From positions 1 through 6,308 of the forward strand of contig JAQGPB010000341.1 in NCBI GenBank assembly GCA_028293265.1: a DNA stretch of 6,308 nt. The letters are read 5' to 3'. The translations under genes were made by a program, and so were the position numbers. Source of the stretch: Pedosphaera sp. (lineage in GTDB: Bacteria; Verrucomicrobiota; Verrucomicrobiae; Limisphaerales; Pedosphaeraceae). Numbering within the stretch: position 1 is the stretch's first letter; every line of letters starts with the position of its first letter. This document shows positions 3,565-4,296 of the stretch, piece by piece. The notes under the pieces are model-generated. The model ran no database searches. It saw only the letters and a program-made list of their open reading frames with translations, and had not been told where the DNA came from.

Positions 3565-3567
3565 GAA

Positions 3568-3573
3568 CTCCTC
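3568..3573 (-). promoter_or_regulatory. Possible internal ribosome binding site within gyrB
   Basis: GAGGAG lies 3 nt before the in-frame GTG at 3564 and 9 nt before an in-frame TTG at 3558, both downstream of the premature TGA. The second spacing is good for initiation, though TTG is a weak start. The same six bases encode the Glu-Glu pair of DGIEEFV, a typical GyrB stretch, so the resemblance to a Shine-Dalgarno may come from the protein sequence. If it works, the C-terminal part could be made as a separate polypeptide. Confidence 0.2.
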
Positions 3574-3606
3574 GATGCCATCCTTAAAATAAAATCGCTC
3601 CAGCTT

Positions 3607-3609
3607 TCA
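3607..3609 (-). other. Premature in-frame TGA in gyrB (codon 230)
   Basis: The TGA follows ...DERQGE and precedes KLERFYFKDGI without any change of frame: the gyrB ATG at 4296 and the downstream GTG at 3564 are exactly 244 codons apart. The codon falls in a variable loop just after the GHKL domain. One substitution would turn it into TGG (Trp), CGA or AGA (Arg), or GGA (Gly). The base after the stop is A, a context reported as leaky for UGA in E. coli. No downstream stem resembling a bacterial SECIS element is visible. Confidence 0.93.
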
Positions 3610-4296
3610 CTCCCCCTGACGTTCATCGGTGAAAACAATTTCAAGCCCTGAATTTAGAAAGGCCAGTTCGCGCAGTCGTTGCATGACGCGGTCCGACTTG
3701 AACTCGATGGTTTCCTTGAAGATTTCCGCGTCCGGCTTGAACGTCACCAGCGTGCCCGTTCCCTTGGCCTTGCCAATGATTTCGAGTTTCTTGGTTGTCT
3801 TCCCGCGCTCGAATTCCATGTGATACACCTGCCCTGCGCGCGACACTTCCACCTCGAACCATTCGCTAACCGCGTTCACGCACTTCGCGCCGACGCCGTG
3901 GGTGCCGCCGGAATAAGTATAGCCGCCCTGCCCGTATTTGCCGCCGGAATGCAGCGTGGTGAGCACCATTTCGACCCCGGGAATCTTGTAGATCGGATGA
4001 ATGTCCACCGGGATGCCGCGGCCGTCGTCGCGGATGGAAATCGAGCCATCCAAATGGATCGCCACCTCAATGTGATTGCAAAAGCCCGCCAGATGTTCGT
4101 CCACGGAATTATCCAGCACCTCGGTGACGCAATGATGCAGAGCGCGTTCATCGGTGCCGCCGATATACATTCCCGGCTTCTTGCGGACGGCCTCGAGGCC
4201 CTCCAGTTTACCCAGCTTTGAAGAGTCGTAACTATCTGGTATTTCCGGCATTGCACTCACAGATGATTCTTCCATTAATTCGTTCTTTTTTGACAT
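3607..4296 (-). CDS. gyrB: DNA gyrase subunit B, N-terminal GHKL ATPase part, ending at an in-frame TGA
   Basis: This 229-residue product is the ATP-binding domain of GyrB. DSSKLGKLEGLEAVRKKPGM is the usual GyrB start region. The Bergerat fold motifs are all present. The N-box has Glu59 (E. coli catalytic Glu42), Asn63 and Asp66. DDGRGIP lies at 90-96, and the ATP-lid glycines fall in SGGTHGVGAKCVNA near 129-142. Arg153 and Thr182 match E. coli Arg136 and Thr165, sites where changes give aminocoumarin resistance, so those contacts are conserved. The first 17 residues extend beyond E. coli GyrB, and Met8 or Met16 are alternative starts. No good Shine-Dalgarno precedes the ATG at 4296. Translation ends after RQGE, where E. 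coli GyrB passes from ATPase to transducer domain. As the first gene of the gyrB-gyrA operon it is probably transcribed from the candidate promoter at 4345-4373. Confidence 0.93.
   Translation of the reverse strand: MSKKNELMEESSVSAMPEIPDSYDSSKLGKLEGLEAVRKKPGMYIGGTDERALHHCVTEVLDNSVDEHLAGFCNHIEVAIHLDGSISIRDDGRGIPVDIHPIYKIPGVEMVLTTLHSGGKYGQGGYTYSGGTHGVGAKCVNAVSEWFEVEVSRAGQVYHMEFERGKTTKKLEIIGKAKGTGTLVTFKPDAEIFKETIEFKSDRVMQRLRELAFLNSGLEIVFTDERQGE

What the first reader, a model, noticed from the sequence alone, without database searches (positions are those of the whole stretch)
3565..3650. Essential gyrB split by a single in-frame UGA exactly between ATPase and transducer domains
The sequence shows a TGA at codon 230 with conserved GyrB on both sides in the same frame and no other lesion in 843 codons. 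gyrB is normally essential, so a decaying pseudogene is unexpected, and no decay is seen. The options are a base error in the assembly, a recent mutation with another gyrB elsewhere, UGA readthrough (the next base is A, a leaky context in E. coli), or a true two-subunit GyrB. The break at a domain boundary suits the last option but is also simply where variable loops occur. Phage T4 shows that type II topoisomerase subunits can be split and still work.
Basis: partly seen in the sequence, partly recalled or inferred. Interest (0 to 1): 0.72.

Follow-up and report, generated by a model that had tools for sequence, protein, structure and literature searches.

The report
Lone in-frame stop in gyrase gene
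An otherwise normal DNA gyrase B gene from an uncultured bacterium of the Verrucomicrobia contains one stop codon that was not found at that codon in the relatives examined, most likely a single-base sequence error or a short-lived mutation rather than a new two-part gyrase.

Summary
In detail: on the minus strand, codon 230 of gyrB (3609..3607) is TGA, and the frame is intact GyrB on both sides. That codon is private to this contig: the 120 best-listed proteins, one of them 91% identical and full length, all carry an ordinary residue there, and none of 74 relative loci that align across it has a stop. In the order no listed gyrB row shows a lone stop there. Neither half shows decay. UGA is also this gene's own terminal stop, so it is not reassigned; no relative has Cys there. 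The break is in a variable hairpin loop about nine residues before the E. coli domain boundary, and the first standard downstream start would drop 14 residues. Most likely a one-base error (about 0.60), next a real UGA that is read through or short-lived. Two things speak against me: only 22 of 288 stop-making changes give TGA and the site is unusually tolerant; and two relatives have a frameshift at this same loop (P0243, P0246), though similar breaks are scattered along the gene. Raw reads would decide.

The parts
3610..4296 (-). gyrB first part, codons 1-229 (GHKL ATPase domain less its last strand)
   Evidence: HATPase_c 48-190 E 1.9e-16; NCBIfam gyrB profile
3607..3609 (-). in-frame TGA, codon 230
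1768..3606 (-). gyrB second part, codons 231-843 (transducer, TOPRIM, C-terminal domain), same frame
   Evidence: PF00204, PF01751, PF00986
1765..1767 (-). normal terminal stop of gyrB, also TGA
3562..3564 (-). GTG codon 245, first standard in-frame start after the stop; no evidence that it is used
2..1735 (-). gyrA, 578 codons, intact as far as it goes, runs off the contig

Best explanation
The window carries an ordinary, constrained gyrB-gyrA pair of a Limisphaerales/Pedosphaera-type Verrucomicrobium. The single TGA is most likely a one-base error in the contig (a read or consensus error in a short metagenome-type contig), so that the living cell has a normal full-length GyrB. Shown: stop not found at this codon in relatives, intact relatives, no decay, UGA used as the terminal stop. 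Inferred: that the base call, not the cell, is at fault, and that the contig is metagenomic.
For: Among the 120 rows listed by each half-gene search, P0121 and P0154 (this 6308-base contig) are the only 100% matches, each standing for one contig. The best 120 of 7999 scored homologues of the whole protein are 823 aa or longer, and 120 of 120 have an ordinary residue at the column. Of 80 loci, 74 align across the codon (5 with a gap there), 6 do not, and no aligned piece over 40% identity has a stop. In 15 of 15 relative genomes there is one high-identity gyrB without stops; the other matches are a distant paralogue (34-41% identity, ParE by inference), seen in 14 of 15, so no spare gyrB is expected. 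In the order, 292 of 320 genomes have gyrB (E <= 1e-100); the 150 best rows list no stop (counted by hand), nor does any row listed. The other 142 were searched: at least six have a within-contig break (G030, G062, G130, G154, G211, G262), three of them with N runs; other partial matches were not all inspected. So faults in this gene in assemblies are not rare (at least 6 of 292). Assembly breaks also lie near this spot: an NN join at codons 227-252 in G262, contig ends at 229-233 in G314 and G308, a contig start at 223 in G095. Window-only changes at near-invariant columns are 1 of 143 and 3 of 333, within the range of relatives (35 and 22 of 120 have as many or more).
Against: No other clear error is seen in the contig: gyrA is open and differs from all 49 relatives compared at one residue only, more than one base away. 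Of the 288 single-base changes that would make a stop in this gene only 22 give TGA, the stop described as leaky (PMC7918605, passages). The site is among the 76 of 843 most variable columns; only 4 of the 22 other TGA-prone codons are as variable. That suits a tolerated real mutation better than a random error. Two relatives on 22 kb and 25 kb contigs (P0243, P0246) have their frame broken at codons 227-231, which could mean that this loop tolerates a break. No row of the 292 genomes shows a lone in-frame stop of this kind, so this exact kind of fault is itself rare. No reads could be inspected.
Confidence: 0.6

Rival explanations
1. The TGA is real and is read through often enough (near-cognate tRNA) to supply full-length GyrB; a transient, low-cost nonsense allele.
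For: TGA rather than the far more accessible TAG/TAA, and a variable loop position; followed by A; no decay on either side. In-frame stops under purifying selection are reported as widespread but short-lived in prokaryotes (PMC7918605: abstract, passages and section 2.1).
Against: Gyrase is needed in quantity and ordinary UGA readthrough is low (general knowledge); the same gene ends in TGA and must terminate there; no Rfam family matches the window (0 at gathering); not seen at this codon in relatives.
Confidence: 0.17
2. The TGA is a real recent loss-of-function mutation: a dying or minority strain, or a genome with another gyrB copy.
For: A private lesion with no further decay is what a very recent mutation looks like.
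Against: 15 of 15 relative genomes have one high-identity gyrB; the paralogue is distant. A majority consensus base should not come from a dying cell line (inference). No whole genome is held for the window, so a second copy is untested.
Confidence: 0.15
3. A true two-subunit GyrB: the ATPase piece stops at codon 229 and translation restarts downstream.
For: The stop lies between the Pfam ATPase and transducer matches. A purine-rich AGGGGGAG lies just before the stop, 6 bases ahead of a CTG at codon 232. Two relatives (P0243, P0246) are frame-broken at codons 227-231 and one genome (G262) has an NN join there. T4 shows that a type II topoisomerase gene can be split (PMC2988022, passages).
Against: Those relatives break by frameshift, not by a shared stop, and P0243 runs on out of frame for 92 residues. 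Frame breaks also occur further along in other fragments of the same list (for example near 289, 309, 316, 351 and 355) and at about 124, 315-335, 410-460 and 515-531 in genomes. The first ATG/GTG/TTG in frame is GTG codon 245 and the first ATG codon 282, so the C piece would lose the last strand of the ATPase hairpin. The stop is about nine residues before the E. coli boundary. The catalytic Lys of the QTK loop is in the other piece, so ATP hydrolysis would need exact reassembly.
Confidence: 0.05
4. Recoded UGA: reassigned code or selenocysteine.
For: Only that the frame stays open across the UGA.
Against: gyrB itself ends in TGA, and so do 16 of 53 relative gyrB genes checked. No relative has Cys at the column (0 of 120; 0 of 69 loci with a residue there).
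Confidence: 0.01

Closest known systems
Bacterial DNA gyrase subunit B (GyrB), Verrucomicrobia subdivision 3 type
   Same: All four Pfam domains in order, followed by gyrA; 91% identity to P0001 and 79-84% to the other listed proteins; ATPase, QTK-loop and TOPRIM acidic residues (motifs by recall) are in invariant columns.
   Different: One in-frame TGA at codon 230, not seen at that codon in the relatives examined.
In-frame nonsense codons in prokaryotic genes (Belinky et al. 2021, PMC7918605)
   Same: A single stop, conserved frame on both sides, no decay.
   Different: That study counted stops shared by two or more species so as to reduce artefacts (section 2.1); this one is seen once.
Phage T4 type II topoisomerase with split large subunit (mobA insertion; PMC2988022)
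   Same: Gene of a type II topoisomerase interrupted.
   Different: T4's split is ascribed to a homing endonuclease insertion (passages); here there is no insert and no standard start right after the break.

Membership tests
DNA gyrase subunit B | GHKL ATPase, transducer, TOPRIM and C-terminal domains in order | tested here: met
   two open pieces scanned apart; NCBIfam GyrB profiles
DNA gyrase subunit B | One uninterrupted reading frame | tested here: not met
   TGA at codon 230 in the sequence as held; whether the cell has it is untested
DNA gyrase subunit B | Partner gyrA adjacent | tested here: met
   2-1735 minus, GyrA profiles
Split two-subunit topoisomerase (T4-like) | Same split shared by relatives | tested here: inconclusive
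   No relative has a stop at this codon; two have a frameshift at codons 227-231, one an NN join; breaks also occur elsewhere in the gene
Split two-subunit topoisomerase (T4-like) | Standard start codon and ribosome site for the second piece at the break | tested here: not met
   first standard start 14 codons downstream; only a CTG at codon 232 has a purine-rich stretch at fitting distance
Split two-subunit topoisomerase (T4-like) | Both pieces made and assembled into active enzyme | not testable with these tools
   needs proteomics or biochemistry
Gene with UGA reassigned to sense | UGA not used as a terminator | tested here: not met
   terminal stop of the same gene is TGA
Selenoprotein | Cys at the aligned position in relatives | tested here: not met
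   0 of 120, 0 of 69 with a residue there
UGA readthrough gene | Measured full-length product | not testable with these tools
   no proteome or reporter data
Pseudogene | Relaxed constraint or further lesions | tested here: not met
   no other stop; few odd residues; a very recent pseudogene would look the same

The most novel reading that the evidence does not exclude
A living bacterium runs its only gyrase through an in-frame UGA placed in a tolerant loop, either by steady readthrough that sets the GyrB dose or by restart that yields two GyrB pieces which assemble at the ATPase hairpin; the frameshifted relatives P0243 and P0246 would then be further cases of a loop where GyrB can be broken.
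Probability: 0.13. Interest if true: 0.65.

Novelty: not a real feature. Interest (0 to 1): 0.14.

Why it matters
As it stands it matters mainly as a caution: a lone stop in an essential gene of a short contig, not seen at that codon in any examined relative, should be checked against reads before it is read as biology. If the TGA were real, an essential, abundantly needed enzyme would be made through a nonsense codon, which would make the cost and dose effect of natural readthrough directly testable.

Tried and rejected
Recurrent split at the same place: at least six genomes of the order have within-contig gyrB breaks and a few partial genes end near codon 223-253; on inspection G262 is an NN scaffold join, G308 and G314 are contig ends and G095 a contig start. 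In the N-half search, 32 of the 120 listed proteins (the window's own P0154 among them) end at residues 222-245, most of them without any foreign tail, as cut fragments do, and the ends are spread over 200-400. P0243 (frame broken after 227, 92-residue tail) and P0246 (after 229, 12-residue tail) look like true frame breaks at this loop, P0237 perhaps a third (after 233). Of 28 proteins with unaligned tails of 5 or more, the others lie at 256-382, except P0197 and P0261 at 227, whose short tails look like ordinary GyrB. I could not fetch the contigs of P0243 and P0246, so this is left open, not rejected. Chimeric contig: not supported, both halves have P0001 as nearest relative at 92% and 92% (residues 20-229 and 231-843). 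GyrB-GyrA fusion: several genomes showed open frames of about 1750 aa; this came from my own reading of TGA as W, because gyrB ends in TGA and gyrA follows in frame, and with P0001 as query the frames are normal. Structure model: too poor overall for a fold search, used only as support for the hairpin. Rfam: nothing at gathering. Papers: searched; no report of a split bacterial GyrB appeared in the listed titles and abstract beginnings, which are not exhaustive. A row (G116) counts one TGA, where its match starts three codons later, none is counted, so I take it as lying before the start codon (not inspected). One TAA is counted in a distant gyrB paralogue of G019, not followed.

Full report
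What is there. The window holds, on the minus strand, gyrB (4296..1765) followed by gyrA (1735..2, running off the contig); on the plus strand are a short ORF, a CopC-domain gene and a CopD-like gene. gyrB has 844 codons; the only stops are codon 230 (TGA, 3609..3607) and codon 844 (TGA, 1767..1765). The nearest genome contigs are uncultured Verrucomicrobia subdivision 3 / Limisphaerales / Pedosphaera MAGs by most of their record titles. No whole genome is held for the window itself.

Is the stop shared? Not at this codon. Searching the read-through protein gave 7999 scored relatives; the best 120 listed are all 823 aa or longer, the first (P0001) 91% identical over its full length. In an alignment of those 120, the column of codon 230 holds A 86, S 11, V 6, T 5, K 4, G 3, H 3, N 2, never a stop; P0001 has Gly. 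Of 80 loci from genome contigs, 74 align across the codon (5 of these with a gap there) and 6 do not; no stop occurs in any aligned piece of more than 40% identity. Searches with each half alone list 120 rows each; only the window's own contig (6308 bases) is an exact match (P0121, P0154), each standing for one contig. Six shorter relatives (P0122-P0125, P0137, P0150; 658-802 aa) start upstream of the break.

A partial exception. Among the 120 N-terminal pieces (the window's own among them) end at residues 222-245, most without foreign tail, as cut fragments do. But P0243 (319 aa, 22 kb contig) leaves the GyrB frame after residue 227 and P0246 (241 aa, 25 kb contig) after 229, both about 79-80% identical; P0237 may do so after 233. 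These look like frameshifts, not stops. Other frame breaks in the same list lie further on, for example near 289, 309, 316, 351 and 355. The list favours breaks after residue 225, because the query ends at 229, so a cluster here is partly made by the search. I could not fetch those contigs.

Background in the order. Of 320 genomes in the order of G001, 292 have gyrB at E <= 1e-100. The best 150 rows, counted by hand, list no internal stop, and the rows listed (query P0001) list none either. The other 142 genomes were searched (70; 72), the 70 again with P0001. At least six genomes have gyrB broken inside a contig: G030, G062, G154 (frame breaks without N), and G130, G211, G262 (with N runs); not every partial match was inspected. 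One TGA is counted beside the G030 frame break and one at the extreme start of G116; one TAA in a distant paralogue of G019. None is a lone in-frame stop in gyrB at this place. Partial genes that end near codon 230 turned out to be contig ends (G308, G314), a contig start (G095) or an NN join (G262). So assembly trouble at this spot, where a highly conserved block meets a variable loop, has been seen before.

Copy number. In 15 of 15 genomes reached through the best loci there is one high-identity gyrB without stops; the other matches are a distant paralogue at 34-41% identity, seen in 14 of 15, which I take to be ParE without having tested it. A spare gyrB is therefore unlikely by kinship, but it was not tested in this genome.

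Constraint. Outside codon 230 the window differs from the relatives at 1 of 143 near-invariant columns in the first part and 3 of 333 in the second. Relatives average 0.43 and 1.25, with 35 and 22 of 120 having as many or more. Codon-position GC is alike on both sides. Both halves have P0001 as nearest relative at 92%, so the contig is not an obvious chimera. gyrA has one residue that differs from all 49 relatives compared.

Where the stop falls. Pfam places HATPase_c at residues 48-190 and DNA_gyraseB from residue 240. In the alignment to 6rks_B (E. coli GyrB by recall) codon 230 sits in a two-residue gap after about residue 211, while a structural paper gives ATPase 20-220 and transducer 221-392, with the QTK loop and the active Lys337 in the transducer (PMC4159350, passages only). 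A weak model (mean pLDDT 52) shows strands 219-224 and 232-236 on either side. The break therefore lies in the turn of the last ATPase hairpin, not exactly between domains. The first standard start in frame is GTG codon 245, the first ATG codon 282; a CTG at codon 232 has a purine-rich stretch upstream. A second piece from GTG would lack 14 residues, among them the second strand of the hairpin.

Weighing. A base error explains a stop seen once, in a constrained, apparently single-copy, essential gene on a short contig with no other lesion. Three facts pull the other way. Only 22 of 288 possible stop-making changes in this gene give TGA. The column is among the 76 of 843 most variable, as are only 4 of the 22 TGA-prone codons. 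And two relatives are frame-broken at this loop. Under a random error a TGA at so tolerant a place would be about a one-in-seventy outcome among stop-making changes, before allowing for mutation bias and for the fact that I looked after the event. A real, tolerated UGA predicts just this. But a real one must be present in a growing cell that needs much gyrase, which is far rarer beforehand; Belinky et al. report in-frame stops in prokaryotes as common but short-lived and mixed with artefacts (PMC7918605: abstract, passages, section 2.1). I put base error at about 0.60, real UGA with readthrough 0.17, real loss mutation or spare copy 0.15, split enzyme 0.05, recoding 0.01.

Limits. No reads, no second assembly of the species, no genome.

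Noticed in passing
window 5076-6308 (+): A CopC-domain gene (5076-5513) followed by a CopD-like gene (5544 to the contig end; just below Pfam's cut-off) points away from gyrB: a likely copper-handling pair beside gyrase.
   Followed up: partly
window 4745-4936 (+): A 63-codon ORF between gyrB and copC with no Pfam match; whether it is a gene is unknown.
   Followed up: partly
P0243 after residue 227; P0246 after residue 229 (proteins): Two relatives on contigs of 22 kb and 25 kb have gyrB apparently frameshifted at the very loop where the window has its stop; other frame breaks in the list lie further on. Errors, or a loop that tolerates breaks.
   Followed up: partly
L081 about 2406-2419; L082, L083 ends; L084 start: Metagenome assemblies of this order break or are joined with N near gyrB codons 223-253 in four genomes (G262, G314, G308, G095), just after a highly conserved block.
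   Followed up: yes
L020 1354-6640; L091-L093: In several genomes gyrB ends in TGA and gyrA follows in the same frame, so read-through of that TGA would make a GyrB-GyrA fusion of about 1750 aa; it also makes false 'fusion' frames when TGA is read as sense.
   Followed up: yes
window GyrB residue 525 (2722-2724), GyrA residue 38: Residues that differ from all relatives compared (120 GyrB proteins, 49 GyrA) by more than one base change, so probably real divergence rather than errors.
   Followed up: partly
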